From: Dacryopinax spathularia
Lineage: Eukaryota; Basidiomycota; Dacrymycetes; Dacrymycetales; Dacrymycetaceae
Reading direction: 5' to 3'
DNA length: 64,000 nt
Assembly: GCA_037974965.1 (NCBI GenBank)
Contig: JBBPFI010000007.1
Location: 1,550,001 to 1,614,000 of the forward strand
Below are positions 19,526 through 64,000 of the stretch, piece after piece. Positions within the stretch are counted from its first letter, which is position 1; every line of letters starts with the position of its first letter. Under the pieces are notes generated by a model. The model saw only the letters and a program-made list of their open reading frames with translations, was not told the origin of the DNA and did not search any database. A program made the position numbers and the translations under genes.

Positions 19526-21372
19526 ATGCGCGTCCTCGCTGGTGGCATCGCGCTGCTGCCGCTGTTGGCGCACGCCATCCAACTGCCCTTACGCGTCCCT
19601 CCGTCCTACGGCGCACCTTCAACTCCTTCGTCGCCGCCTACCGCAAACTATGGCTTCCCTCAAGCAGGACCTGCATTCCCAGCCCCGGAACAGTCGCTCT
19701 CCGCTTTGTCCACTGAAGGATATACAACGCTCACGCATGAACGGTTCGCGGGATATGCAGTGAGGATTAAGCAGCAGGAGAAGGGCTGGTGCGACCCGGA
19801 TGTACGGAGTTGGACAGGTTACTTGGACATAGATGGAGGGGCGAAGCACCTGTTCTTCTACGTACGTTCCCTAGTGCTCTCCTGTCTATGCTGAATGTTG
19901 AGTTATTGTAGTTCTTCGAGAGCCGCAACTCCCCCTCCGAGGACCCGCTCCTCATGTGGATCAACGGCGGTCCAGGCTGCTCCTCCGCCCTAGGGCTGTT
20001 CATGGAGCTCGGTCCCTGCAAAGTGAACAAATACGGGAACGACACCATCCCTCACGCCGAATCCTGGAACGACCGGGCGAACGTCTTCTTCCTCGACCAG
20101 CCGGTCGGTGTTGGGTTTTCCTATGCGGACTATGGAGAGGTGATCGAGACTACTGAGGATGCGGCCAAGAATGTGGCTGCGTTCATGTGGATCTTTATGG
20201 AGACGTTTAAGGAGTTCAAGGGGAGGGAGTTCCATATGGCTGGCGAATCCTATGGTGTACGTTAGGCAACGATTTCATGCGGATTATGCTGACAGTGCCC
20301 AAAGGGCCGATATATCCCAGTCTTCGCCTCTGAGATTGTGGATCAGAACAAGCGCGCCGCTGCAAATGGGTTGCAGGAGATCAACCTCCAGAGCGTCATG
20401 ATCGGCAATGGGATCACCGACTTCTATACTATGATGCTAAGCTACTATGACATGACCTGCACGAGCGCGAGCGTTCCGCCAATCTTGGTGCGCTATATCC
20501 ATCGGTGGGATTATCGCGATATATGCTGACAACGGTCCATTCCAGGATATCAGCCAATGCGTACGCATGAAGCGAGCTGTAAGTGGCTCAGTCCGAGCCG
20601 TTGACGCCTGCTAATCTCCATCCAGCTCCCCCGGTGCGCCCAAATGGCCAAAGCCGCCTGTATCGACGTCCTGGACGAGCTAGCCTGCACAGCCGCTTCC
20701 CTCTTCTGCGTGAACGAGATCGAAGCGCCGTTCTTCACAACAGGGATGAACCCGTACGACATCTCCAAGCCGTGCGACGGACCGATCTCGGAGACGCTCT
20801 GCTACCCAGTAACGAAGCAGATCGGGAATTACCTGAATTTGAACAGTACGCGTAAGCTGTTAGGGGTGAGCGACGCGGTGCCTTTGTTCGCCGGGTGCTC
20901 AGCGGCGGTTGGTGAGGGCTGTGAGTCCTTCCTTGCCTCCGTGCGCTTCGCATGAGCTCATAGGAGCAACAGTCAGCCGGAGGATGGACGAGATCGCCCC
21001 CGGTCCATTCTACATCACCGGCCTTCTCGAGCGAGGCGTCTCCGTCCTGATCTATGTGGGCACATATGACTGGATCTGTAATTGGGTCGGAAACATGCGT
21101 TGGGTCGAGGCGCTCGAATGGCACGGACAGGAGGCGTACAACGCTGTGCCGGTTAGTGACTGGCTTGTGGAGGGCGAGAAGGCGGGGATCACGAAGGGCT
21201 GGAAGGGGTTGACGTACGCTACTGTTGAGGGAGCGGGACATATGGTCAGTTCGGGCTTTCCTTGACGACCGTGTCAACCGACTGACTGAGGGTGCTTTTG
21301 TAGGTCCCGTACGACAAGCCTGTTCAGGCACTGGCGATGGTCAACCGGTGGTTGGAAAAGCGTTCTTTGTGA
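19526..21372 (+). CDS. Secreted serine carboxypeptidase (S10), copy 1
   Basis: Seven exons (19526-19861, 19912-20256, 20305-20487, 20546-20578, 20626-20920, 20973-21244, 21304-21372) give 510 residues. It removes C-terminal amino acids from peptides. The signal peptide is [17 protein letters not shown]. The S10 family marks are [15 protein letters not shown], the nucleophile Ser225 in AGESYGGRY, Asp430 in VGTYDWICN and His487 in GAGHMVPYDKP, so the triad is complete. Several Asn-X-Ser/Thr sites suit a secreted or vacuolar glycoprotein. The fourth exon is only 33 bp. It is followed head-to-tail by a paralogue with introns at the same places. The enzyme family is secure; extracellular versus vacuolar location is open. 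Confidence 0.95.
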
Positions 21373-21690: not shown

Positions 21691-23510
21691 ATGGCTCTCC
21701 TCACCCTAATCGGCCTTTTCTCGACCTTGGTCTATGCTCTTCAAAAACCGTTGGCGCCGAGCTCGTTTGAAAGCGCGTCGGTGAACTTCAATTTCCCCGC
21801 ACCTGAACAGTCTCTGGCAGCGCTTTCAAGCGACGAATACACCACTCTGACGCATGAGTTCTTTGTGGGGTATGCCGTCCGTATCAAGCAGACAACGGGC
21901 TGGTGTGATCCAGAGGTACGGAGCTGGAGTGGCTACCTAGACGTCGACGGCGGAGCGAAGCATCTGTTCTTCTACGTACGCCCATTTGCCTTCGCCCGCA
22001 GAGGTGACGCTAATCCTTGTGTTCAGTTCTTCGAGAGTCGCACTTCACCGACCGATGACCCACTTCTGATGTGGATCAACGGCGGTCCTGGCGGAAGTAG
22101 TGCGTACGGCCTGTTCATGGAGCTCGGTCCATGCCGAGTGAACGAGCACGGCAACGACACCGTCCCCTTCCCGTACGCCTGGAACGAACATGCCAACGTG
22201 TTCTTTCTCGACCAGCCGGTTGGAGTCGGGTTCTCGTACGTGGACTATGGAGAGGTCGTTGACACCACCGAGGATGCGGCGAAGAACGTCGCTGCGTTCA
22301 TCTGGATCTTCACCGAGACATTCAAGGAGTATCGAGGGAGGGAGTTCCACATGTCTGGCGAGTCATACGGCGTATGTGCCTTTCCTCGCAGCGATCACCC
22401 CTCAGCAGTGATCGTCTGATCGTCTGCTACAGGGGCGTTACCTACCTGCCTTCGCAGGGGAGATCCTCGACCAGAACAAGCGTGCGGTCGAGAAGGGCTT
22501 GAGGCAGATCAATCTGAAGAGCGTCATCATCGGAAATGGTATGGTCGATGTGTTCAGTATGCTACCGAGCTACTACGATATGGCTTGCACTGCAGCTAGC
22601 CTTCCTCCCATCTTGGTATGTCAACCAGGCTGCTGTCACCTTGCGAGGTTAACCAACGACCCAATATGATGGTAGGATGTGAAGCAATGCGTACGGATGA
22701 AGCGAGCTGTGCGTACGCCTTCGACCGTGAGAGAGCCCAAAGACTGACAATGTCCAGATACATCGCTGCAACAAGATGATGGACAAGTCCTGCATTAGTG
22801 TGCACGACGAACTAGCCTGCAGAGCCGCCATGACCTTCTGCGACGAAGAGCTCATGATCCCCATCTTTGGCTCAGGCATGAACCCGTACGACATCTCCAA
22901 GCCCTGCGAGAGCGAACCAGGCGCCGGTAGTTGCTACGCGATGGCGACCCTCATAGAGCAGTACCTGAATATGAACAGCACACGAAAACTACTCGGGGCG
23001 GACGAGAAAGTCAAGCATTTCCAAATTAGTTCTATGGAGGTGAACACGCGTTGTACGTCTCATCATCGACTCGGCCTTGGTTCCTCTGGCGGCCGGCTGA
23101 CACCTGACAGTCACTGAGACGCAAGATATGTACGTAACAACCTCGCCGTACTACATCACCGCCCTGCTCGAGCGGAACGTCTCCGTCCTGATCTACGTCG
23201 GCACATACGACTGGATATGTAACTGGGTCGGACAAGAACGATGGCTCGAGGCGCTGGAATGGAGAACACAGGAGACGTTCAACTCCCTGCCGAAGAGGGA
23301 GTGGGTGGTTGATGGACAGATAGCGGGGAAGACTAAGACGTTTGGGGGGTTGACGTATGCGACTGTGGATGGGGCTGGCCATATGGTGCGTGCTACAGTC
23401 GGGAATGTAGGTGGGGCGAGCGCTAATCGGGACTGCGGTAGGTGCCATACGACAAACCTGTCGAAGCGCTCCAGATGATCAACCGCTGGCTCGGAAAGAA
23501 GGAGCTCTGA
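21691..23510 (+). CDS. Secreted serine carboxypeptidase (S10), copy 2
   Basis: Seven exons (21691-21975, 22027-22371, 22433-22615, 22676-22708, 22758-23052, 23111-23385, 23442-23510) give 494 residues. Exons 2, 3, 4, 5 and 7 are exactly as long as those of copy 1, so the pair arose by tandem duplication. The start at 21691 gives a signal peptide, MALLTLIGLFSTLVYA. Ser208 (SGESYGGRY), Asp414 (VGTYDWICN) and His471 (GAGHMVPYDKP) form a complete triad. One unusual change stands out: the near-invariant Cys after GGPG is Gly118 here (GGPGGSS), while copy 1 keeps GGPGCSS. That Cys borders the oxyanion/substrate region in S10 enzymes, so substrate choice or stability may differ. Otherwise the gene looks whole. 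Confidence 0.94.
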
Positions 23511-51686: not shown

Positions 51687-53116
51687 CTACGGCGCCTCGC
51701 ATGCCACGCTCCACAGCCTACCCGTCCAGTTCCCCACTTTCACCTCCCTCCCGTCTCCTTCTCCTGCCGCACCACCTCGGCCGCCCTGGAGCACCACAGC
51801 CGTCAGTTCCCGGCCGTAGACGCAGCCCGTATCCAGTCCCAACGCCCAGCGAGTGACTTGAAGGCCCAGTTTGGCCGCGTGGCCAAAGACGACCGCCTGC
51901 GGTTTCTTCTCCTTCAGCTCTCCCTCTCCTTCCATATCCGTATCCGCGCCTCCAGCCTCGCCCGAGCTAGCAGCAAGTTTGTCCTGGTAGGCATTGAACA
52001 CCTCTGTCCAGGGCGTGCCGTCAAATTTCCTGGACGCCTCCCCGCCCTTCAGCACACTCCTGATATTCATCAACGCCCACGCGTCCGGTCTCTCCTCCTC
52101 CAGCATACGCGGCAAAATGCCCGCATGGACCAGGTTCCCCCCAACAGCCGACAACTCGACTATCAACGGCAGATCGACCAAGTACTCGAATTGAGCGGCC
52201 GAAAGATGGCGCGCGAGCCAGTAGTGCTCGCTTCCCCAGACCCAGTCGCGTGAGGAGGGGAAGGCGTGTTGTTTTAGACGGGCGCGGTCGGATTTGGAGA
52301 GTTTGTGTTTGAGCTTGGTGCTGCTTGTTACGTCGGCGTGGGTGAGCTTCTCGACGCGTTTGAGGAATTGGGCGCCTCTACACAGAAAGATTAGCACCTT
52401 TGCGTATAGTAAACAGGAACGAAGGAAAGATGGTGGAGGGAAGACGAAGGGGGACGAGGGAGAGGCAACGTACCCGGGGAACGACTCGACCCAGTTCTGC
52501 CAGATCCGCCAGCCGATCACTTTCTGATCATGGTTTCCCCTCACGCCCTTTATCTTATGTTCCACGAGCCAGTCGAGCACCTTTTCGGAGTCGGGGCCTT
52601 TGGCGAGAACGTCCCCGACGTGGAAGAGGGTGTCTTTTCCGGGGGTGTAGTCTAGTTTCTTTAAGAGTTGTCTGGAATTGACAAGGGTTAGCATAAAGGG
52701 GAATGGAGAGAATGTAGGGCGTACTGGAAGGGCTTGTACATCCCGTGGATGTCGCCGACTATGATCACTCGCCGGTTTGGGTCGTCCAGGTGCAGGTCCT
52801 CAGCTGGGATCACATCACGATATTTGTATTTCCCAAAGTCGACTTTCCTCGTCACTGTGCCTGCATCAGCGCTTGTTCTTCCATACAGAGGGGAGTGAGG
52901 CGCACCGTCTATCCCAGAAGCATCCAACACAACCTCCTCACTAGCCAACGCATAGCTCTTCTCTCCCCACCCCGCACTCGGGCGGAGGGTATACCACCCA
53001 AGGCTCAGGACACAAAGCCCAACAACAACAGCATACAACGCCTGTCTCGTACCCATCGTATAGAGGAAGTTCTTCATATTCTCAATGATGGAAGAGTAGA
53101 CATCGCCAAGTTTCAT
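51687..53116 (-). CDS. Membrane-anchored metallophosphatase, Ppn2-like
   Basis: A calcineurin-like phosphoesterase with a single N-terminal membrane anchor. ATG at 53116 (MKLGDVYSSIIENMKNFLY), then the hydrophobic segment ALYAVVVGLCVLSLGWYTL. The metal-binding motifs are in order: RRVIIVGDIHGMYKPF, LFHVGDVLAKGPDSEKV, GVRGNHDQKVIGW, LPLIVELSAVGGNLVHAGIL and AVVFGHAAKLGLQ. This set and layout match fungal proteins like yeast Ppn2, a Zn-dependent vacuolar endopolyphosphatase, and the bis(5'-nucleosyl)-tetraphosphatase group. Polyphosphate cleavage in the vacuole is therefore the best inference. About three introns are visible. The frame is open upstream of the chosen ATG without another ATG. Metal ligands look complete. 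Confidence 0.88.
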
Positions 53117-53305
53117 GTAGCGGTCTGGATGAGGAGTACCGCAGCGGTCGTACTGTACTGCGTAGGTGGATAGGAAACCCTCCGGGGGCACCTGGTCAAC
53201 GGAAGCAAACGCGTCGTATCCCTCGTTTCATCCGCCATCCATACTGTACGTACTGCTGGTCGTAATCGTTTCGCCTCACTATTGCTGAAAGTGGACTCTG
53301 TACCG
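53117..53305. promoter_or_regulatory. Short divergent promoter
   Basis: 189 bp between the phosphatase start (minus) and the first GRF-finger gene (plus). It also marks the border between the conserved and accessory parts of the window. Confidence 0.45.
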
Positions 53306-54123
53306 ATGCCGGTTATCGAACACGTCGTCCCGTGGTTGGTCTGTCAGTGCGGGTTGTTGTGCGCTTTGCATGTGAGCAAAGCACCAGACAGTCGCGGTAT
53401 GGCGTTCTATAGTGAGTCGTTTCGTGTTGGAAGTGCGTATATGCTGACGCGAAGCAGAGTGTGCTCGAGTGAACGCGGAGAAGACGTGTCGCACGAATGA
53501 GTGGGTGGAGGACGTGGCGGAGAGGTGTGGTGTCGTTCAGCCGCTTCAGATTGTTCCGCCTGGCGTGCCGGGTCACTACTTGACCGTTCCGAACGGTGTT
53601 CGCATGGCTTCAGCCGAGCTCGTCGCGAGCGGCACGGAGAAGGTGTTGAACATGCTGCCGATTGAGTACAGGAGGTGAGAGCGCATGGTTATGCGTGGCG
53701 AACGTGTATTGACGAGATTACAGTGGGGGTGTTGCGGAGGTGAAGCAGGAGCCGAACATGGATGGCATACGTGAAAGGGCCGGAAACGTGAGGCGCTCGC
53801 CATCGTACGAGGGCAAGGACGAGTCGGATTCGGCGGTGAGAGCATACAGCTATACCTATCGATACACACTGATGGTCCAATAGGGCGAGACGGTTCTTAG
53901 CGACTACTCGAATGCATTCAAGTCCGAGGCGGAGCTTGAGGCGGAGAGTAGCGCGGCGACCGCCGTGTCGACTGCGATGGTCGAGGCGTTGAAGGGTGTA
54001 CCGGCGCATATCCAACAGCTACAGGATCGTATCAAATTGCTGGAAAAGAGGGTGAAGCGTCGGGACAAAACGATTGCCACTTTGGAGGCCGAGGTGTCCG
54101 AGCTGGTGAGTCACCTCGGTTAG
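53306..54123 (+). CDS. GRF zinc-finger/coiled-coil protein A
   Basis: Four exons (53306-53411, 53458-53674, 53724-53835, 53884-54123) give 224 residues. At the N-terminus is a GRF-type zinc finger: CQCG with Cys13 and Cys15, FYKC with Cys37, Cys46 and the closing Trp51. It is followed by a segment shared with the other members (EWVEDVAERCGVV, IVPPGVPGH, LNMLPIEYR). The middle is charged and Ser-rich, and the C-terminus is a coiled coil (VPAHIQQLQDRIKLLEKR then IATLEAEVSEL). GRF fingers bind single-stranded nucleic acid in topoisomerase III, APE2 and NEIL3, so nucleic-acid binding is inferred; the biological role is unknown. Intron 1 splits the codon after FY in phase 1, exactly as in genes B and E. 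It looks intact. Confidence 0.75.
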
Positions 54124-54363
54124 TTCCGGTCGCCACATTGCTGTACGAGTAGGTTGTGTATTCTGTGATCGGTTTGTGGTACGTTAATGAGTCATTGTTT
54201 GCCCCTGTTTCCGTTTATGGCGTCAGGGGCGATCGGCAATCAGACAAAATCCGACGATATGAGTCGGGCGATACGAAGTCATCTCTTTGCGGGCAATGCA
54301 TATAATCAGGACGGTTGGTGTCGCAGCCTTCTTCGAAACGATCATCTGACAAGACACAGCAGA

Positions 54364-55410
54364 ATGCCTACGTGGATACAGCCCGGATTGCCTTGGCCCT
54401 ACTGCCGATGCGGCCTTCCTACGGTTCAGCTCCAGTCGAAGAAGCCGCTGTCGGAGGGACAAATCTTCTTCAGTACGTTGTAGCTTACTATAGGAACGTT
54501 GGTCCTATCGTTGTCGACAGAGTGTCCTCGAACTGGGTACAAATGTCGAACGTGGGGTGAGTCATTCACGCTGTAGTATGTGCAGACGATATTGAGTTTG
54601 CTTAGTGTGGCTTCACCAACTGTATGCGGCTTTCGAATATCCAGTGGATGGTCGTCCCATTCCGCCGGATGAGGACGGCCACAAACCGTTAATCGCTGAC
54701 GATGTCGAGTTGGCAGACGGGGCTGAGATGGAGGAAGCGATCGCCCACGTTTTGCGCTACTTGCCTGACCAGAGTGAGTTTGAGCTGTCGGACGAGCTCG
54801 ATCCGTCTCGCGGTGTCGTCGCACTGGCGTCGCACATGGAACGTATTGAGGAACGGTAGGTAACGATGTTGTTTTCGACACGAATCGGCTTTGATATTAC
54901 TACCTAGGCCCGTTTCCACGAGCAAGCGATTGTGCAACGCGAAGCGTTCTTACGAGGATGCCTTCGTTGATGACGAAGGCAGTCAGGAGGTCGTGGTACG
55001 GCCCTCGGCACAGCGAAGGAGGAAAACGGAACCTCGCCGTGGCTCTACTAAGGTACAGGGAAGCGGCACGGGCACGGTGTCAAAGGTGAAAATACTTTCC
55101 ATTTGGGGCGGCAATATGTTGAGTTTCCTATCAGCGTAACCACTCCGGAAGGAAGAAGCGCGAAGAAAGTGTCGGGTTCATTGAGGAAATGCCTGCTGAG
55201 AATGAGGCGAGCACGCAAGCAGAGGTTGATAGCGCATCGGCTGTCGTAGGTAAGGCGGTCGGGTCCGCGTTGGTTGTACTGGCGGGGATCGTGTCGAGGC
55301 TGGAAGCCGACTCGGCGACGCTTCTAACGGATGCGGTGGACAGGCGTTTGTCGGTCGAAGGATTGCAGGCTGGTCTAGACGAAGCGAAGAAGCTGCTCGG
55401 TCTTGTGTAG
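54364..55410 (+). CDS. GRF zinc-finger/coiled-coil protein B
   Basis: Five exons (54364-54472, 54521-54556, 54606-54855, 54909-55085, 55135-55410) give 282 residues. The finger is the closest to the GRF consensus: CRCGLP (Cys14, Cys16), FFKCPR (Cys38), Cys45 and Trp50 in KCRTWVW. It is followed by RPIPPDEDGHKPL and VLRYLPDQSE, the counterparts of VPPGxxGH and MLP in genes A and E. A basic stretch (SAQRRRKTEPRRGS, then SGRKKREESVG) may be a nuclear signal. The C-terminus is an amphipathic helix (EADSATLLTDAVDRRL, then EGLQAGLDEAKKLLGLV) rather than the heptad coil of A. Exon 2 has only 36 bp. Introns 1 and 2 sit at the same codons and phase as those of gene E. It is tandem with gene A. Function unknown. 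Confidence 0.72.
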
Positions 55411-55486
55411 AGCACGGTGTTGATTGCATGTAAGATGGGTACATTGTGGTTACGTATACACAGAGCATTGCAATTGAGAAGGAACG

Positions 55487-56162
55487 TTATACCAACGACT
55501 CGTGTTTGAGGCGTTCTATGTCCCGCTCGAGTTCGTAAATGATGATCTCGTCGACCTCCGCGATGTTTTCGAGGTTCTGTAGTCTGGCTTCGCATCTCTC
55601 GATGAATTCGGGGAGCTTGGCGAGCTCGTGTATGAAGTCGGGAGCGGAATTGGGCGAGTAGTTGTGTTCGGATGCGATTTCAGACTGGGAGTAGTACTTA
55701 GCGTCGGGTGAGTTGCGGATTGAGTCAGGTGCGTACGTGAGGACGTTTCCTCGGAACGACTGCATTAGTTTGGGTGTGCTTCGAGTGGACCGAGGCGTTC
55801 GCGGGCCAGTGTTGATCTTGAGGCATTGGAGGTGTAACATGGATGTGGACGATGCGCTGTGTCAGGGGCGAGCAGGAGGCTGATGGCCGCGTCCCCCTGG
55901 AGAAGGGTCTACTCGACGCGGCCCTTGTTCGCTGGTCGAGCCGCACCGCATGTGTCGATATCTACAGCATACAATCGATTATGAGAACATATCGTTCTTC
56001 GTGATTGGCACCGCCGTACCCACTCTGCCGACTAGTGGTCTCAGTTGGGACCAGAACGGATACGTGAGGCGGTCGAGGGGAGTCGTTGTCGGTATCGGCA
56101 GCGAACGGCGGCTCCTCGAAGGTCAGTGTTAAAGGTCGGCTTGGCGCCCCGTTACCGCTCAT
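55487..56162 (-). CDS. Coiled-coil protein C, probably related to the GRF family
   Basis: The secure part is the 3' exon 55840-55487. It includes RGNVLTYAPDSIRNSPDAK and ends in a coiled coil with LPEFIERCEARLQNLENIAE and IIIYELERDIERLKHE. That end resembles the C-terminus of GRF protein A and of the partial gene at the right edge (LP/VP-x2-I-x6-R pattern followed by a charged helix). Upstream, an ATG at 56162 opens a 66-codon frame (MSGNGAPSRPLTLTFEEPPF) with a possible GTACGG donor and GTATGCTGTAG acceptor. The join to the 3' exon is not resolved, and I find no GRF finger. It could be a family member that lost its finger, or two separate pieces. Confidence 0.5.
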
Positions 56163-56378
56163 TCCTTCTTCCAGGGTTCCGACATATACAGCTGCGTTCG
56201 TCGTGTGCCGTTCAATAGCTCACAAAGTGCCGTTCTTCCCGTCGCTCGCAGATCGTCCGTTGTCGATTGCGGTGTCCTAGTCCGGCGTGATGGTTACCTA
56301 AGTCGTCACCACCGTCCTCCCCTACATTAACGAGCTGGCTGCGAGCGAGATCGACTCTTATGGCGAGATGAGGTGAGC

Positions 56379-58400
56379 CCCTCACGTCGGCATTGACCTC
56401 GGTACAATCTACTGCTGCGTAGCAGTATGGCAAGATGACGGGGTGGAAATCATCGCAAACGACCAGGGCAACCGAACAACGCTCACTTGCGTGTCCGGCT
56501 CCAGAACCGAGCGGCGCATTGCCAAGAACCAGGTCACCATGAACCGGCACAACACCGTCTCTGACGCCAAGCGATTCATCGGCCGCAAGCTCGATGACCC
56601 TGAGGTCCAGGCTGATATCAAGCACTACCCCTTCACGGTCATCAACCCGGGCGGGGAGCCGATGATACCGACCAGGGCCACCGAAGGACGCCCTCATACG
56701 TCTCCGTCTCCGACCCTGAGCGGCTCATCGACGATGCGGCCAAGAACCAGGTCGCCATGAACCGGCACAACACCGTCTTGGACTCCAAGCGATTCATCAA
56801 CCCGGAAGTCGGTGGTCCGACCCCGAGCGGCTCATCGACGATGCGGCCAAGAACCAGGTCGCCATGAACCGGCACAACACCGTCTTGGACGCCAAGCGAT
56901 TCATCGGCCGCAAGCTCGACGACCCTGAGGTCCAGGCTGATATCAAGCACTACCCCTTCACGGTCATCAACCCGGGCGGGGAGCCGATGATACCGACCAG
57001 GGCCACCGAAGGACGCCCTCATACGTCTCCATCTCCGACCCCGAGCGGCTCATCGACGATGCGGCCAAGAACCAGGTCGCCATGAACCGGCACAACACCG
57101 TCTTGGACGCCAAGCGATTGATCAACCCGGAAGTCGGTGGTCCGACCCCGAGCGGCTCATCGACGATGCGGCCAAGAACCAGGTCGCCATGAACCGGCAC
57201 AACACCGTCTTGGACGCCAAGCGATTGATCAACCCGGAAGTCGGTGGTCCGACCCCGAGCGGCTCATCGACGATGCGGCCAAGAACCATGTCGCCATGAA
57301 CCGGCACAACACCGTCTTGGACGCCAAACGACTCCAAGCTCGACGACCCTGAGGTCCAGGCTGATATCAAGCACTTCCCCTTCAAGGTTATCAACCCCGG
57401 CGGCAAGCCGATGATCCAGGTCGTGTTCGATCAAGGGTGAGACCATGTTCTTCTTCTCCAGACCGGAGATCATGGTCCTCCCGAAGATGAAGGAGACTGC
57501 CGAGTCCTACCTTGAGCGGACCGTCGGGAACGCCGTCATTACCGTCCCTGCCTACTTCAACGACTCACAGCGTCAGGCGACAAAGGATGCCGGTGGAATC
57601 GCTGGCCTGAACGGTTTCCGTATTATGAACGAAGCGACGGCCGCCCCATCGCCTACGGTCTTGTCAAGAAGGCCCAGGGGGAGCGCAACGTCCTCATCTT
57701 CGATATTGATGGTGGAACGTTCGATGTCATCCTGCTGACGATCGAAGAGGGTATCTTCGAGGTCAAGGCCATCGCCGATGATTCAACTTCGATAGCCGCC
57801 TCGTGAACCCCATCGTCCAGGAGCTCAAGACGAAGCACAAGAAGGACCGCAGCACCAACGCTTGAGCCCTCTGTCGCATGAGGACTGCTCGCGAGCGTGG
57901 TAATGTCGAGGGCATCGAGTTGTACACCTCCATGACCCGTGCCCGGTTCGAGGAGCACTGCCAGGACGTCTTCCGCTGGACGCTCGAGCCAAGAAGGATC
58001 TCAACACTAACGCTCGTGCCCTTCGTCGTCTGAGGACTGCTTGCGAGCGTGGTAAGCGCATTCTGTCATCCGCGACCCGGACCGCAATTGAGCGCGACTC
58101 GCTGTTTGAGGGTATTAACTTCTTCACCTCCAACTCGTGCCCGGTTCGAGGAGCTCTGCCACGACCTCCTTCGCTCGACCCTCGAAGCCGTAGAGAAGGT
58201 CCTCCGTGTCTCGAAGATCGACAAGTCGAGCGTGCACAAGATCGTCCTTGTCGGCGGTTCCACGCGTATTCCTCGTATCATCAAGCCAGTCTCCGACTTT
58301 GTCAACGGCAAGGGCCCAACAAGAGCGTCAACCCTGATGAGACCGTCGCATACAGTCACGTCCATTGTTCCGAAGCACGCGCGGCTTGCTGAATCATATC
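56379..58400 (+). pseudogene. Hsp70 (SSA-type) pseudogene with internal tandem duplications
   Basis: Recognisable cytosolic Hsp70 fragments run in order on the plus strand: [17 protein letters not shown] with [12 protein letters not shown] near 56,385-56,470, [44 protein letters not shown] with [18 protein letters not shown] near 57,490-57,590, [12 protein letters not shown] near 57,690, RARFEEHC-like and [15 protein letters not shown] near 58,150, and [18 protein letters not shown] near 58,230-58,270. They lie in several different frames, with stops between. The ATPase N-terminal segment is amplified in tandem (107-bp and 325-bp periods), and the substrate-binding C-terminal half is missing after about 58,400. 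So this is a dead, truncated, rearranged gene copy. Codons around the conserved blocks are still good, suggesting fairly recent decay. No intact parent is in the window. Confidence 0.88.
56563..57345 (+). repeat. Nested tandem repeats inside the Hsp70 pseudogene
   Basis: A GAGCGGCTCATCGACGATGC core occurs five times, at 56718, 56825, 57043, 57150 and 57257. Spacing is 107 bp between neighbours and 325 bp between the first and third and between the second and fourth. The longer unit is also seen as a GACGCCAAGCGATTCATCGG block at 56563 and 56888. Copies are nearly identical. Neither 107 nor 325 is a multiple of three, so the array cannot encode a repeated protein. Confidence 0.9.
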
Positions 58401-58708
58401 GGGGCTGCCGCCGGATGTTTGCCTGATGAAAGATTCGGAAACCGAGGCGTTGAGCCGATATGCATCGGGTTTTTTTGCGTCATGTGTGGATCGTGGGTTG
58501 GGTTCGGGGGATGGATTTAGTGAGTCAGCAATTACGAGACTGGGCGCGTTTAGGAGGTGAGTCAGGGGTGGAACACCGTTCGAAGCGGTTGGGCAATAGG
58601 GGTATGTTGTTGCGTCGAGACCGTGTGACTCCGTCAGCCTGGTTGGTGCGCATATATTCATTCGAACGCGACTATCGTTGTGAACCGTCTTGAACCGTAT
58701 CGGCCACT

Positions 58709-59420
58709 ATGATTGAAGCGATTATATTGCCTTGGTTATACTGCGAATGCGGTCTATGTTGCACGCTACAGACCAGCAACGCCCCGGGAACTACAGGATA
58801 CTTGTTTTACCGTGCGTATCCTAATCGTTATCACGACACTATTATGCTGATAGCATTGCAGGATGCCCGCAACTATCTATGACGCACCGTTGTGGAGTGC
58901 ACGGTGAGATTCGTTGGTGACGGTGTGGTATTACGGCTGATGACTATGATGCAGTTTGGCTCGAGGACGTTGCGTCGGCCTTTAACATTGTTGGTCGTTG
59001 GAGAGTGGTACCGCCAGGCAACGTCGGTCATCATCCTCACCCGGTTTCGCCCGGTATGGTCGCCCCGGAAGACGAGCAGCGGAAGGCTGTCGAGAAGGCG
59101 AATCATATGCTACCGTATCCCTTGCAGAGCAGGTACGATCGCAAGGAGTATCAATGGCAGACGGAGGTGAGTCAGTAATGACTTGCGATGCGTGTCGATT
59201 GGTGAACGACCTGCAGGACGACGAACTGCAGGCGTTGATGGGAAAAGTATCCGTGAGAGATGTCACGGCGGAGGACATGACGGAGCGCATCGAAGTGTTA
59301 AAGAGTTGCGTCGCGTCAATGAAGGAGATGATACGGGTGAAGGAGAACTGTATCGTTGGTTTGGAGCGAAGGTTGGAGGAGGCATACGATATTATTGATC
59401 ATGGGGGTGACTACATGTGA
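58709..59420 (+). CDS. GRF zinc-finger/coiled-coil protein E
   Basis: Four exons (58709-58811, 58862-58903, 58955-59166, 59217-59420) give 186 residues. The N-terminal GRF finger has CECG (Cys12, Cys14), FYRCPQ (Cys36), Cys45 and Trp50. It is followed by VWLEDVASAFNIV, RVVPPGNVGHH and ANHMLPYPLQSR, closely matching gene A, and a C-terminal coiled coil (EDMTERIEVLKSCVASMKEM then IVGLERRLEEAYDII). It is separated from genes A and B by gene C and the Hsp70 pseudogene. Its stop lies 17 bp from the stop of the next, minus-strand gene. Likely nucleic-acid binding through the finger and self-association through the coil; both are inferences. No damage seen. Confidence 0.73.
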
Positions 59421-59437
59421 CAGCCAAGGACGGTCCG

Positions 59438-59964
59438 CTATGCCAGTTCTCTATGCATACTGAAATCGTCGAGCTGCAACTTGCGAAGCGCATAGTATGC
59501 AGCGTACTCCTCTGCGATGCCTAGGTCGGTGCCCATGTAGTCACTGATAAGTTGAGTTCCTTCTTAAGGGGGTCGGTGCGGTTCGAGACTGGTATCGATG
59601 ACTCACTGAAAATCCTTACGAGCCATGCTTGTGTGGGCCCCTTGCCGACGAGTCGGACGTCCCAAGTGAGCAGGATGCGTTTTTCGTGTGTCCGGGCTGC
59701 TAAGTCTTCTTTTGAGCCGCGGATGAAGAAGTCGAAATGGTTGTCTTCCTGCTCCGTTTTGCACATGTGGTTGTGGCCGTTCGGGGGGAAAGGTTTTTGC
59801 CTTTGGGACGTTGCAGTTCGGGATGGAGATGCAGGGACTTGATTCGAGCGATGTGTGTTGTAGGCGGAACGGTTCACCCCCACCGCCCCGCTGAACCCGC
59901 ACGTTTCGGGCTGCGTTGTCGGCCACCCTTCCGGGCTGCTTAGTCCGATGACAGGTGTATCCAC
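59438..59964 (-). CDS. Unrecognised protein, 160 aa
   Basis: Two exons (59964-59607 and 59562-59438) join in frame through a 44-bp intron (GTGAGT to TTAAG). The first half is Pro/Ser/Asn-rich and may be disordered. The second half looks folded: NHFDFFIRGSKEDLAARTHE, RILLTWDVRLVGKGPTQAWL, VRIFKGTQLISDYMGTDLGI, AEEYAAYYALRKLQLDDF. The alternating strand-like and helix-like pattern suggests a small alpha/beta domain, but I recognise no family. The acceptor after TTAAG was chosen because it alone keeps the clearly coding last exon open. It is tail-to-tail with GRF gene E, 17 bp apart. Confidence 0.6.
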
Positions 59965-60157
59965 GCGGAACCGATGTGGGTTCGCTATGGTTTACCAGGG
60001 TGGGAGGCGGACCGGTTTGCCCGGCGCCGCAGGCGAAAGGGCACGTCAACGCCAGGTGGCCGAGATGTCTACGATGTGGTCATCCTCTTAGTCATAGCAC
60101 TGCGGAAGGCGGATATATGGCTGACATCGTATCGAACAAGAGCTTTGCCGGTACGCA

Positions 60158-61196
60158 ATGGTTCCCCCCTGTCCAGAGCTCGTGTCGCGGTTCGTATCTG
60201 CTGAGGTTTATCGCAGGATTCTTACGTTTTGTGACGTTCCGCAACTGGTTCGGATTGCGAAACTCAGCCGCCTCGATCGCGGCTTGGCATGGAGCGTCAT
60301 CTGCCAGCGATGGAACCCACGAAACCTTTTAGAAGAATACGTGGACGATGCTGCTGCAATTTGCGCGGCGGTGCAGCGAACTGGAGCGGGCTTAGCCGGC
60401 CTTGGATTGCTGTCGTTTCTGCTTAACGAAACAACAAGTGGCAAAGTACTAGATATATACGTCGGCCAGCAGCACGCGTGTGACGTCCTGAACACGCTGC
60501 TTATGGCCCGGTGCGAAGTCTTGGTGCAAGTGGGCACGACAGCGAGCCGAATGAGTCAACGTGCGTGGGCGTCGCTGCCGTCTGACACCAAGGACGGTGA
60601 GATATCAACAGTGTTGGTTCGGGCATGTTATTGATTCAACGCAGTTACCTGTCTGCGCACGAATAGAGGCTGTTTTATCCGCTTGGTAGCAGTCAGATTC
60701 AGCCCGACGTTAAGCGTGCTGATACTCGCAGAAAGTGAGTGTTTCGATATTAGAATAGAACGGGCAATTGACAAGGACAGCGGGACTCATGAATCTGATG
60801 ACGACACGGCATGTTTTCAGCTTGTACCCGAAAACCACGTTTGACTTGAAGGTGTCGATTGGTGTAATAGACAAGCGCAGGGGCGGTCGTCGTAAGCAGC
60901 CCCCGTGCTGTGCCCCATTGCTGCGAGGAAGGTCGGCTTGCGAGGTGGGTGCGATGGAGCATCAGGTTGGCCAGAGGTGGGTTGGGGACGGAAATAGTTG
61001 GGTCGTATCGTTTCCGGAGGTCGGGTCGGAGAGGCGGTCGACTTGTACCGATCCCCTTCTGCATTCTTGCGGTGATTGCTGGCTCGCTGGATTCGAGAGC
61101 GACGCCGACCTCTTTCACAAACTGTCGCGCACGTCCCTGTCGAACGCCGCCGTTCCTGCGGGTCTGCAGTTCACGGGGAGGATCAGAGAGACTTGA
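60158..61196 (+). CDS. FHSTCVM-family protein, degenerate copy
   Basis: Three exons (60158-60596, 60645-60734, 60781-61196) give 314 residues. It is paralogous to the minus-strand gene that overlaps its 3' end. Parallel blocks are LVRIAKLSRLDRGLAWSVIC, VQRTGAGLAGLGLLSFLL, VLDIYVGQQHACDVLN, FIRLVAVRFSPTLSVLILAE, and GLMNLMTTRHVFSLYPKTTF (paralogue: CVMSWLTWDRLFVLYPRAVF). Introns match the paralogue in place and phase. It lacks the Gly-Ser and the first Asp of the nucleotidyltransferase-like motif (paralogue GSQPLQ...SDLDLYV, here GLGLLS...GKVLDIYV), so any catalysis of that kind is unlikely. The C-terminal third is Cys- and Ser-rich. The reading frame is whole, and it may still be expressed with a binding role. 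Confidence 0.65.
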
Positions 61197-62270
61197 CCTG
61201 ATTCGCTGTTGTTCTCCTCGTCGGTAGAAGCATCACGGACGCGGGACTTATCGGGGAGGCCGTAGATGTGCTCGACGAGGGCGAAGCGGTGGTAATACCG
61301 TCCGTGGTGATCCGTTAGCAATAGCCAGGAACCCTCGAACTGTTCGTAGGAAGGACGAGCGTGTGTCGGCCTGGTATTTGTATTGAAGCGGCGCTGGCTG
61401 TGCGCGAGAACCAAACAATCTTGGTCGCCGATGAATCTGGCACCGATGGGAAACTCGCGGTGCAAAGCGGGTGTTGGAATGTCGGACTGGTAGCTGAAGC
61501 CGCGGCGCTTGTATTTAGCGATGCCGTCGAGCGACGACGACTGCATTGCTCTGTTGATAGCAAGAGAATGCCTGCTGAAAACCGCCCGAGGGTACAACAC
61601 GAAAAGCCGGTCCCACGTGAGCCATGACATGACACAGGCTGCATATATGGTCAGGAAGAGTCGATTTTGTGACACTAACCAGCATACTCGAGTGAAATGT
61701 AAGGATACACGGAACGATGCCGTTCGCCGGTACGATTAGTTGGACTTGAAGGAACCGAGTCGAATCCAGAGCTTTGCGCAACGTTGCCACTGACACGCGT
61801 CAAGACAGGCACTCGGAAGCTGCAACGATCTGGGACGCACCGCTGTTGATCTCCCCCTGCGTTCCGTACAGGGCGTCCGTGGTCGCGGAAGGGAATCGAG
61901 AGGCGGGGGCGATGTGATGCACTGCGTACCCTTCCGCTTCAACGGCGCGAAGCAGGCCATGTGCTGCTGTCGGTAGGACGTAGAGGTCAAGATCGGACTC
62001 GTCCCAGACGGTGTCGAGTAGGAGTTGCAGGGGTTGGGAACCGCTGATGACCGCGCCGGTGCGCTTCATCGCACGAACCATGGTTTCCGGGTTGTCGAAA
62101 AATCTCATCAGAGTTCGCCTCACGTCCCAACGTCTGGTCAACTCGTGAGACGCGGCTTCTGCAATGTCTCCCTCCAATGACGCGAGTCTGACCAGGAGAA
62201 TGGGATTGCAGTGTTGGACGAACTCGCGCAACAAGGCGTAGGTCAAAACCATGGAGAACGATACCACCAT
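61115..62270 (-). CDS. FHSTCVM-family protein with nucleotidyltransferase-like motif
   Basis: Three exons (62270-61841, 61789-61688, 61638-61115) give 351 residues. The layout agrees with a family I recall as strongly expanded in Agaricomycetes. An F-box-like helical start (LREFVQHCNPILLVRLASL, RRWDVRRTLMRFFDNPETMV) comes first. MKRTGAVISGSQPLQLL then TVWDESDLDLYVLPTAAHGL follows, and after an intron VQLIVPANGIVPCILTFHST and CVMSWLTWDRLFVLYPRAVF. The GS-x(n)-SDLDL pattern fits the nucleotidyltransferase fold motif (Gly-Ser, then Asp-x-Asp), but I know of no demonstrated activity for this family. The FHST codon is split by intron 2. Its last 82 coding bases overlap, on the opposite strand, the last coding bases of its own paralogue. 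No breaks seen. Confidence 0.72.
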
Positions 62271-62566
62271 CTTGAGGCGGATTGGATGGCCGGCCGGGGC
62301 AGCAATCTGTTTGATACAAACTTATATGTGGCGGGATGCTATGTCAGGCGGCGACGTGGCCGGCATCGAATCGGAAGCATGCGGTCCGCGTTCACTGGTT
62401 TTCTTTCGCATTGCGGGAACTTCTGATTGGTGGGGTTATGGACACGTGTCGTTGTATATCAGACTTCGTGTTTATAGGCGAATTGGAGTTCGAGTATCGA
62501 AGAACAGAAAAGGAACGTCGACCACGTCAGCAGCATGGGTTATCATGTTCGCAAAGCACACAACTG

Positions 62567-63412
62567 CTAACGAGACGTTGGACAGCCGACAAAGTACGGA
62601 TGCGTTACGATATGTGCTGAGGGTCGGTGGGCATGCCGTTTCAGCCTCGAATTGTAGGACGACTCCCAGATCCACACCGGCACCCGTCTACGCAACGACA
62701 GTATGCGACCACTATCATCTGGATGCCGATCCCCGTCCTCAACACGGCCCCAGTGCCCGTCTGCGAAGCGAAGCCATACGCGCCGGGTCTCATATTCCGC
62801 GCCAAACACCCACAGTCCGAAAGTGGGTGCGGACGATAGCTGCGGAGGATCGACGGGACCGTTACCTAGACCGACGGTGATCATAACGTCCGGCCGGTCG
62901 GGTTGAGGGTCCCAGCGGTTGGGAACTCGGACGTCGTCATTGCCAACCTGAGGCGTACATTAGTAACGCGGCCGGAGGATTGAGAAGGTGAGCACCTTAA
63001 CGTGGTCGTCGCCGCCTTCGTCGGCGTGCCTCATCTTCTTGATCAAGGATGTCAGTGCCATCCAACAAGGCTCGTCGAGGACGCAGAGGATCAGATGGGG
63101 CTTCGATGGATGGTGAGTGCCTGACGTCGCAGCCACCCATTCCTGACTGTTGTCAAGGAACCAACAGCGATGCTGCACGCGGTCGAATCGATTCGGTATC
63201 CACGCAATGTCACCAGTGCGGAGATGACGCAGCAGAGACGACCAAGTCGGTGGCTCGGACAGGTTGTGCGGTAGTTCGACACGCCGACAGGACCGCAAAG
63301 TCTGTAAGCGGACCTTCACGGTGCCGTTGATGATGAAGTTGATCCTGCTGCTGCCTATACGGATTCAGCGCGACGCCGACTGTGCAGCGTTAGTGTGCTG
63401 CTTACCAGTCAT
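62567..63412 (-). CDS. Unrecognised protein, 248 aa
   Basis: Three exons (63412-63406, 63354-62996, 62947-62567). The first has only 7 bases (ATG ACT G), joined through a 51-bp intron. The second intron has a perfect TACTAAT-type branch site. Frame is kept across both. The protein starts MTGSSRINFIINGTVKVRLQ. A segment TGDIAWIPNRFDRVQHRCWF...GTHHPSKPHLILCVL resembles the small beta-barrel layout (Gly-Asp-Ile start, His-Pro-x-x-hydrophobic strand) of SH3-like fungal proteins, but I would not name a family. The second half has MITVGLGNGPVDPPQLSSAP, FGLWVFGAEYETRRVWLRF and ILSLRRRVPVWIWESSYN. Function unknown. It lies in the same orientation as the FHSTCVM gene, 296 bp away. Confidence 0.6.
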
Positions 63413-63763
63413 TGGCGGGCGATTGGCACAGTAAACCTGGGCAGACGCGATGAGAATGGATTGAAGGTCGGATTAGTCTGGTGATGGCGTCGTGCGTGGG
63501 ACGAGCTGGGAACGAATTGGTGGCATGCTATAGTACCGATGGCCGGCCGGCTACGCTGCCCAGGCACGGCGGATGTGAGGAGCGAGGAGACACGGAAGCA
63601 TTTTGCGGACCGATGAAGGAGTCATGATCCGCTTGAGCGTGGCTCGCTGCGTTATCGCTGTGTTATACATCACATTGACGTTGTATACAAGAACATGTAT
63701 CGCGCTGTTATACATGGCGGTCAGGTTATGCAAGAATGGGTATCGCGGCGGTATGGATGCCAA
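63413..63763. other. Intergenic
   Basis: 351 bp between two minus-strand genes: promoter of the 248-residue protein and trailer of the right-edge gene. No gene seen. Confidence 0.35.
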
Positions 63764-64000
63764 TCAATGTATCAGAACGCCGATGCTATTACGGGCACGC
63801 AGTTCGTCTCTCTCCTTCTCCAAGCGAGCAATGTAGCGGTTATTCTTCGCGTTTCGCAATTCCGTCGCACGGATCTTCTCAAGTAATCCTTCAATGTAAG
63901 ACGGTAGCGACATGACAGCGTCGCAGACAGCAACCTCGCGTATGTCATGCAGAGACATGCCCGATAGTTGATGAGACAACGTGGACGCCGATGATTCAGC
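63764..64000 (-). CDS. C-terminal coiled-coil fragment off the right edge, GRF-family-like
   Basis: Minus-strand frame open from base 64000 to a stop at 63764. It encodes ESSASTLSHQLSGMSLHDIR, then AVCDAVMSLPSYIEGLLEKI and a charged coil (YIARLEKERDELRARN) before the end SIGVLIH. The pattern of a small-residue stretch, L/VP-x2-I, then a heptad coil matches the end of GRF protein A (VPAHIQQLQDRIKLLEKR) and of protein C (LPEFIERCEARLQNLENIAE). It is probably the tail of another member of the cluster. The finger, if present, is outside the window. Confidence 0.5.
   Translation of the reverse strand, partial: AESSASTLSHQLSGMSLHDIREVAVCDAVMSLPSYIEGLLEKIRATELRNAKNNRYIARLEKERDELRARNSIGVLIH

What the first reader, a model, noticed from the sequence alone, without database searches (positions are those of the whole stretch)
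53306..59420. A local cluster of GRF-zinc-finger/coiled-coil genes with unknown function
Three genes (A 53306-54123, B 54364-55410, E 58709-59420) share an N-terminal GRF-type finger with CxCG at residues 12-16, a third Cys at 36-38, a fourth at 45-46 and a Trp at 50-51. They share a following (V/I)PPxxxGH and MLP/YLP block and a helical or coiled C-terminus. The first intron splits the codon just after F-F/Y in phase 1 in all three, and B and E share intron 2 as well. Outside these blocks the proteins are almost unrecognisable as relatives. That pattern of fixed scaffold, fast-changing body and local copies is what one sees in conflict or recognition systems. GRF fingers in characterised proteins bind single-stranded nucleic acid, so a nucleic-acid-sensing or transposon/virus-related role is a testable guess.
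Basis: partly seen in the sequence, partly recalled or inferred. Interest (0 to 1): 0.78.

Follow-up and report, generated by a model that had tools for sequence, protein, structure and literature searches.

The report
Zinc-finger gene family inside giant Helitron
The three odd zinc-finger genes are not a host gene cluster: they belong to a family of six such genes carried by a large jumping gene (a rolling-circle transposon of the Helitron kind) that sits at four places in this genome and has copied itself fairly recently.

Summary
Genes A, B and E exist at the stated coordinates with canonical introns, and GRF is the top Pfam family of each N-terminus (E 5e-5, 0.026, 3e-4; below the curated cut-off). 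What they are differs from the proposal. The same cluster lies at four places in the genome (contigs C7, C8, C5, C14). Each is a 23-26 kb unit with conserved ends; C5 and C14 differ at 151 of 12,120 compared bases and have unrelated flanks. Each unit holds six GRF-type genes in fixed order, 24 in all, with intron 1 placeable in 24 and intron 2 in 23, and one Helitron Rep/Helicase gene. The ends have the asymmetric inverted repeats and terminal hairpin described for Helitron2/Helentron elements; a 357-base derivative carries both ends. So A, B and E are genes of a giant Helitron2-type transposon. The GRF cores are under strong purifying selection, so a fast-evolving conflict system is not supported for them; the one long tail with enough changes to test is looser. 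Best guess for function: single-strand-nucleic-acid-binding accessory factors of rolling-circle transposition. That step is inferred; the arginine of the GRF motif is lost in 17 of 18 cores. Four literature searches found no Helitron-GRF report.

The parts
53171..64000 (.). Part inside the window of a 25.7 kb Helitron2-type element; it continues to G000:C7:1628892 (78892 on the window scale)
   Evidence: conserved ends in four copies; sharp ends and unrelated flanks shown for C5 and C14, same end points in C8; Rep domain inside all four. In C7 the limits rest on the end motifs
53171..53208 (-). Element terminus on the gene-A side: ends CTA before a T, short CCCGGAGG palindrome, inverted repeat CGTTGACCAGG 20 bases inside
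   Evidence: aligned ends of four copies plus a mini copy and a solo end; pattern search
53306..54123 (+). Gene A: exons 53306-53411, 53458-53674, 53724-53835, 53884-54123; GRF ribbon, PPG..GH linker, helical-looking C-terminus
54364..55410 (+). Gene B: exons 54364-54472, 54521-54556, 54606-54855, 54908-55085, 55135-55410; GRF ribbon family
55487..55861 (-). Open frame conserved in the C5, C14 and C8 copies (48-50% identity over 64 aa); no Pfam family above cut-off
56377..58370 (+). Broken and internally duplicated HSP70-like gene fragments between B and E in this copy; 57520-57800 is 88% identical to C4:1304799-1305052 over 253 bases
   Evidence: frames (HSP70 named by eye), repeats, genome match
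58709..59420 (+). Gene E: exons 58709-58811, 58862-58903, 58955-59166, 59217-59420; GRF ribbon family
60125..60631 (+). Open frame related to frames in C8 (40%), C5 and C14 (38%); no Pfam family
61803..62321 (-). Second open frame matching the same place in C8 (31% over 83 aa); no Pfam family
63767..64000 (-). C-terminal part of gene X (GRF paralogue with long low-complexity tail); the gene starts at C7:1615222, outside the window

Best explanation
Genes A, B and E are three of six paralogous genes that belong to a giant (23-26 kb) rolling-circle transposon of the Helitron2/Helentron type. Four full-length copies were found in this genome, and the window shows the gene-A end of one of them. 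SHOWN: common end sequences, sharp ends with unrelated flanks where compared, a Helitron Rep domain inside each copy (HUH, double-Tyr and PIF1 parts read in the window copy), asymmetric inverted repeats with a terminal hairpin, a mini copy with both ends, six GRF-type genes in fixed order in each copy, a shared exon plan and purifying selection on the GRF cores. INFERRED: the GRF proteins are accessory factors of transposition. The GRF ribbon would bind the displaced single strand (or the folded ends) while Rep nicks and the PIF1 part unwinds, and the helical C-termini would assemble the paralogues into mixed oligomers. This is the role presumed (from general knowledge) for the RPA-like proteins of other Helitrons.
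For: Element: four clusters with the same gene order; C5 and C14 differ at 151 of 12,120 aligned bases in the pieces held (about half of each copy), and the match stops at both ends although 1.36 and 1.17 kb of flank were held; C8 stops at the same points; ends conserved in all four. Helitron_like_N (PF14214) in all four copies. Window copy Rep frame of 2058 aa with DUF6570, Helitron_like_N (E 1.1e-32) and PIF1 (E 7.5e-19), HUH GRGTLHIH, YITDYITK and Walker A. Non-autonomous 357-base copy at C8:1007411-1007767 with both ends. GRF genes integral: 24 genes, shared intron sites; relatives only inside the four elements in 26 of 26, 24 of 24, 35 of 35, 36 of 36 and 18 of 19 matches. Constraint. Ligand: profile match to NEIL3 GRF structures 7jl5 and 7omk (whole-sequence E 3.3e-6 and 5.3e-5, each summing two GRF repeats; best single stretch i-E 0.019); [quoted passage not shown]
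Against: No expression or binding data. The Arg of the G-R-x-F motif is present in 1 of 18 distinct cores (and alignment), so canonical single-strand contacts may be lost. The X genes have Phe for the Trp and two of three distinct X cores have no PF06839 match. All 18 cores score below Pfam's gathering score. The gene-A-side palindrome does not fold better than shuffles, three of three. Of the 45 Helitron_like_N matches in this genome only 4 lie in elements with detectable GRF genes, so GRF proteins are not needed by Helitrons in general. Six paralogues is more than a simple RPA substitute would need.
Confidence: 0.65

Rival explanations
1. The GRF genes are element-encoded but serve against the host (anti-silencing, or masking the ssDNA/RNA of the element from host surveillance) rather than transposition itself.
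For: Fungal transposons, including some Helitrons, carry TET/JBP dioxygenases thought to help escape methylation silencing (PMC12730594, passages read). Six diverged paralogues and a loose tail (X, ratio 0.65) would suit interaction with varied partners.
Against: The ribbon-plus-linker cores are strongly conserved between copies with near-saturated synonymous divergence, unlike typical arms-race proteins. No enzyme domain found by Pfam above cut-off in the GRF proteins scanned.
Confidence: 0.2
2. The GRF genes are host genes captured by a Helitron and carried as passengers.
For: Helitrons capture genes, and this copy has HSP70-like fragments that match another genomic place at 88%.
Against: No relative of this GRF family outside the four elements in five protein searches (one weak match elsewhere, E 0.26; only best candidates are scored). 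Six genes in fixed order with shared intron sites and constraint in elements whose Rep proteins are 60-74% identical (C5, C8, C7). Passengers decay, as the HSP70 fragments have.
Confidence: 0.06
3. A host gene family of a recognition/conflict system that expanded locally.
For: Local paralogues with divergent bodies (A against B and E 31 and 27% identity overall).
Against: Same cluster at four sites with shared ends and a Rep domain in each, flanks unrelated where compared. Conserved cores.
Confidence: 0.03
4. The four clusters are haplotypes or large segmental duplications of the assembly rather than transposed copies.
For: C5 and C14 are nearly identical (151 differences in 12,120 bases).
Against: Similarity stops at the same base on both sides and the flanks held are unrelated; several divergence levels between copies; a short copy with both ends lies elsewhere.
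Confidence: 0.02

Closest known systems
Helitron2 / Helentron / FoHeli elements (PMC4067079, PMC5148889; passages read)
   Same: Rep/Helicase with HUH and PIF1 parts and no endonuclease (as Helitron2); asymmetric inverted repeats, one terminal and palindromic, the other inside the opposite end (20-21 bases here, about 20-40 in FoHeli, 38-60 in mite HINE); hairpin at an end; ends next to T with no target duplication seen; short derivatives; ORF orientation reversed relative to the ends has been reported for FoHeli4/5
   Different: 23-26 kb against about 5-11 kb for FoHeli; carries six GRF-type genes and several other conserved unknown ORFs instead of RPA or OTU genes; Rep motif reads RGTLHIH, neither the S nor the L signature given for Helentrons and Helitrons
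GRF zinc ribbons of NEIL3, APE2, TOP3A (PF06839)
   Same: CxCG..C..C..W with matching spacing; profile match to NEIL3 7jl5/7omk
   Different: N-terminal in small proteins with helical-looking tails; G-R-x-F arginine mostly lost; scores below the Pfam gathering threshold in 18 of 18 cores
RPA-like ORFs of plant Helitrons and Helentrons (PMC4067079)
   Same: A putative single-strand-binding accessory protein encoded by a rolling-circle transposon
   Different: OB fold in RPA (recalled), zinc ribbon here; six genes instead of one
proto-Helentron-Pi of Phytophthora (PMC4067079, section 11 read)
   Same: large (~14 kb) Helitron with several extra ORFs, some hypothetical, and no endonuclease
   Different: extra ORFs are a SET domain protein and hypotheticals; no GRF reported in the section read

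Membership tests
Helitron superfamily | Rep domain with HUH and catalytic Tyr | tested here: met
   PF14214 E 1.1e-32; HUH at residue 781 and YITDYITK at 966 of the window-copy frame; PF14214 also in the C8, C5 and C14 copies
Helitron superfamily | PIF1-type helicase fused to Rep | tested here: met
   PF05970 E 7.5e-19 in the same 2058 aa frame of the window copy; not scanned in the other copies
Helitron superfamily | insertion without target-site duplication | tested here: inconclusive
   four copies compared by eye: only a T on each side, no longer duplication seen; no empty site was available
Helitron2/Helentron | asymmetric inverted repeats, terminal at one end and subterminal at the other | tested here: met
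   CCTGGTCAACG facing inward at both ends in C7, C5, C14 and the mini copy; one mismatch at each end in C8
Helitron2/Helentron | hairpins at both ends | tested here: inconclusive
   A'-end hairpin of 7 bp, stretch z -3.7 and -2.6 (two of two); A-end palindrome no better than shuffles, three of three
Helitron2/Helentron | insertion at TT | tested here: inconclusive
   T before CCC in 5 of 5 and T after the presumed last base in 6 of 6 ends, but whether the first T is host or element is undecided without an empty site; if it is the element's, the preceding base is A in 4 of 5
Helentron (sensu stricto) | C-terminal AP endonuclease on Rep/Helicase | tested here: not met
   no such Pfam match in the 2058 aa frame
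Helitron2 | Rep groups with Helitron2 in a phylogeny | not tested
   no reference set at hand
Helitron2 | circular intermediate | not testable with these tools
   needs PCR on DNA
GRF zinc ribbon (PF06839) | CxCG..C..C zinc ligands with Trp | tested here: met
   four Cys in 24 of 24 genes (third Cys was a criterion of the splice choice); Trp in 20 of 24, Phe in the four X genes
GRF zinc ribbon (PF06839) | score above curated cut-off | tested here: not met
   0 of 18 distinct cores reach 25.9 bits; highest 25.7
GRF zinc ribbon (PF06839) | G-R-x-F motif | tested here: not met
   Arg in 1 of 18 distinct cores, A' of the window copy
GRF zinc ribbon (PF06839) | single-strand nucleic acid binding | not testable with these tools
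   needs protein

The most novel reading that the evidence does not exclude
A lineage of giant Helitrons has evolved its own multi-subunit single-strand-handling machine: six GRF-type zinc-ribbon proteins with helical tails, encoded in a fixed order with two near each end of the element, that form hetero-oligomers on the transposon's single strand and its hairpin ends in place of the RPA used by other Helitrons, letting a 25 kb element move as one piece.
Probability: 0.25. Interest if true: 0.75.

Novelty: new variant of a known kind. Interest (0 to 1): 0.56.

Why it matters
Orphan clusters of small zinc-finger genes in fungal genomes can be parts of very large rolling-circle transposons that ordinary repeat annotation may miss. 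If the GRF proteins are single-strand binders, this is a new answer to how a rolling-circle transposon handles a 25 kb single-stranded intermediate, and an easily expressed set of proteins to test it with. The ends, gene order and mini copy give search handles for finding the element in related genomes.

Tried and rejected
Host gene cluster and haplotype/segmental duplication: rejected by unrelated flanks and shared sharp ends. Starship, Maverick and virus ideas: not pursued once Helitron_like_N was found in all copies. TAL-effector hits of the linker profile (best E 3.4e-12): rejected as summed weak repeats; the individual stretches printed for the three shown have i-Evalues of 45 or worse. 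The NEIL3 match also sums two repeats (best single stretch i-E 0.019), so it is supportive, not decisive. First splice enumerations failed or were too loose (error; one search gave no model for A and B in C5 and C14 and some wrong joins, also for A of C7), replaced, which fix intron sites by homology; intron 2 of B' in C8 was then set by hand. The tails use models. One search used the wrong orientation for minus loci and is replaced. The A-tail selection test returned no codons and is not used. dS between diverged copies is near or at saturation, so those ratios are only indicative. Literature: searches for Helitron with 'GRF zinc finger' (0 papers), 'zf-GRF' with 'transposable element', 'GRF zinc finger' with fungi and transposon (2 papers, on barley and amaranth by title), Helitron/GRF-type/zinc with any two terms (357 papers, 10 listed, none of the 10 with both Helitron and GRF-type); 'GRF' occurs 0 times in the main texts of PMC4289320, PMC10799480 and PMC12730594. 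Subscription papers and Repbase were not searchable.
Full report
What was checked first. Rebuilding A, B and E from the sequence gives three complete genes at the stated coordinates with ten GT-AG introns of 46-52 bp. The N-termini align as CxCG, Cys, Cys, Trp, followed by a PP..GH and LP block. Pfam ranks the GRF zinc ribbon first for all three, below its curated threshold. A profile of the family matches the GRF domains of NEIL3 among solved structures (7jl5 E 3.3e-6, 7omk 5.3e-5, each a sum over two GRF repeats with a best single stretch of i-E 0.019; APE2 5u6z 0.43).

Where else the family occurs. Searching the window's own genome (29.2 Mb, 24 contigs, unnamed) with E, A and B gave 26, 24 and 35 matches, all in four places: C7 (this locus, running past the window), C8, C5 and C14. 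Searches with A' and X gave 36 of 36 and 18 of 19 in the same places; the remaining one is weak (E 0.26). These searches score only the best candidates. The PF06839 model itself rings at four other places in the genome, two of them in one gene that looks like TOP3A (my reading of the frames), and at none in these clusters, whose ribbon is split by introns.

The four places are one mobile element. C5 and C14 match with 151 mismatches in 12,120 aligned bases of the pieces held, about half of each copy (segment identities 98.8, 97.4 with 38 gap columns, and 98.8%), and the match stops sharply at both sides although 1.36 and 1.17 kb of flank were held. The C8 copy stops at the same points. Lining up the ends shows one terminus T/CCCTGGTCAACGACCAGG in all four (one change in C8) and another terminus with CCTGGTCAACG 20-21 bases inside (one change in C8) and a CTA/T end. 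In C7 the limits rest on these motifs. A pattern search found a further exact copy of the first terminus at C8:1007411, and the second terminus faces it: a derivative of 357 bases whose first 79 bases (98.7%) and 26 bases at the other end (100%) match the C5 copy. A solo second terminus lies at C5:1849868. The window copy spans C7:1603171-1628892, 25,722 bases; the window holds 53171-64000 of it.

What kind of element. A search for the Helitron Rep domain PF14214 found 45 matches in the genome, and one falls inside each of the four units. In the window copy the frame is open for 2058 aa and carries DUF6570, Helitron_like_N (E 1.1e-32) and PIF1 (E 7.5e-19), with HUH, double-Tyr and Walker A motifs. 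The C8 frame is also long (2092 aa); in C5 the frame is split by one stop near the N-terminus (1878 aa and 278 aa), and C14 shows a shorter frame (1010 aa). The published description of Helentrons and Helitron2 gives asymmetric, palindromic subterminal repeats, palindromes at the ends and TT insertion without duplication (PMC4067079, passages and section 11 read), and for Fusarium FoHeli elements a hairpin at one end, the inverted repeat about 20-40 bp inside the other end, and in two subgroups reversed ORF orientation (PMC5148889, passages read). The present element fits that plan. By those conventions the A' end is 5' and the Rep gene is reversed relative to it in all four copies; if the A' end is taken as 3' the Rep gene is forward. 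I could not decide this: the A'-end hairpin is strong (z -3.7 and -2.6) and the A-end palindrome is not better than shuffles (three of three).

The six-gene family. With intron sites fixed by homology, each copy yields six GRF-type genes in the order A, B, E, X, B', A'; A, B and E point one way and X, B' and A' the other, so the two end groups face inward. All 24 have the four Cys; a GT donor after F-F/Y with an acceptor giving K/R-C exists in all 24 (this was a condition of the procedure), and intron 2 could be placed in 23, the exception being gene A of the window copy. The four X genes have Phe in place of Trp. Of 18 distinct cores, 16 match PF06839 at E<=0.1 and none reaches the cut-off, the highest being 25.7 of 25.9 bits. 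Other conserved frames of unknown family accompany them: window 55487-55861 (-), window 60125-60631 (+), C7:1623538-1624137 (-) and C7:1624818-1625246 (+).

Selection. On cores of about 104-110 codons, C5 versus C14 gives 4 nonsynonymous and 14 synonymous changes, pooled ratio 0.08. C5 versus C8 gives ratios of 0.02-0.18 where synonymous divergence could be estimated (five of six genes; saturated for X). C5-C7 and C8-C7 estimates, where not saturated (5 of 12), are 0.13-0.32. Core amino-acid identity (C5-C8 72-88%, C5-C7 51-77%) is of the same order as Rep (74%, 60%). The low-complexity tail of X is loose (12 to 7, ratio 0.65); the B' and E tails have too few changes (1 to 1, 0 to 1) and the A tail was not measured. 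So the cores are kept by selection along with the transposase, which argues for an element function and against both passengers and an arms race at the ribbon.

Function. The most economical reading is a set of accessory nucleic-acid-binding proteins for rolling-circle transposition. [quoted passage not shown] Against it, the arginine of G-R-x-F survives in only 1 of 18 distinct cores, and most Helitrons of this same genome lack detectable GRF genes (4 of 45 Rep matches have them). Anti-silencing is the main rival, since fungal Helitrons are known to carry TET/JBP genes (PMC12730594, passages read).

Novelty. Helitrons with extra genes are known; a Helitron with a GRF family was not found in the library searches listed, which do not cover subscription papers or Repbase. 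This makes it a new variant of a known kind. The host-conflict reading of the first stage is replaced, its transposon guess is upheld.

Noticed in passing
window 56377-58370: HSP70-like gene fragments (named by eye) with internal near-identical duplications lie between B and E in the window copy; a 281-base piece is 88% identical to C4:1304799 over 253 bases. B and E starts are 4.3 kb apart here and 2.0 kb in C5, so this looks like a captured or inserted gene decaying inside the element.
   Followed up: partly
G000:C8:1007411-1007767 (L091): A 357-base non-autonomous derivative with both element ends.
   Followed up: partly
G000:C5:1849780-1849960 (L092): A lone copy of the A-side terminus, perhaps a remnant of another insertion.
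   Followed up: no
G000 genome-wide: 45 Helitron_like_N matches, including pairs with identical scores (C5:1413973 and C6:1170867; C7:221939 and C12:842453; C1:1092702 and C4:705455), suggesting other recently active Helitron families. The closest relative of this element's Rep outside the four copies is C18:350674 (56% identity).
   Followed up: partly
G000:C5 and C14 copies: Rep frames look interrupted: C5 by one stop between 1071016 and 1071020, C14 with an open frame of only 1010 aa.
   Followed up: no
window 51687-53227 (-): The element's A-side end lies near the 5' side of a gene that looks like a calcineurin-like phosphoesterase (my reading of the frames, no search).
   Followed up: no
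window 19784-20135 and 21872-22250; C7:1629703-1630087: A repeat at about 70% identity outside the element, with one member in its right flank.
   Followed up: no
C7:1624818-1625246 (+) and C7:1623538-1624137 (-): Two conserved frames of unknown family in the element (69-70% and 64-73% identical to the C5 and C8 copies), candidates for further accessory proteins.
   Followed up: partly
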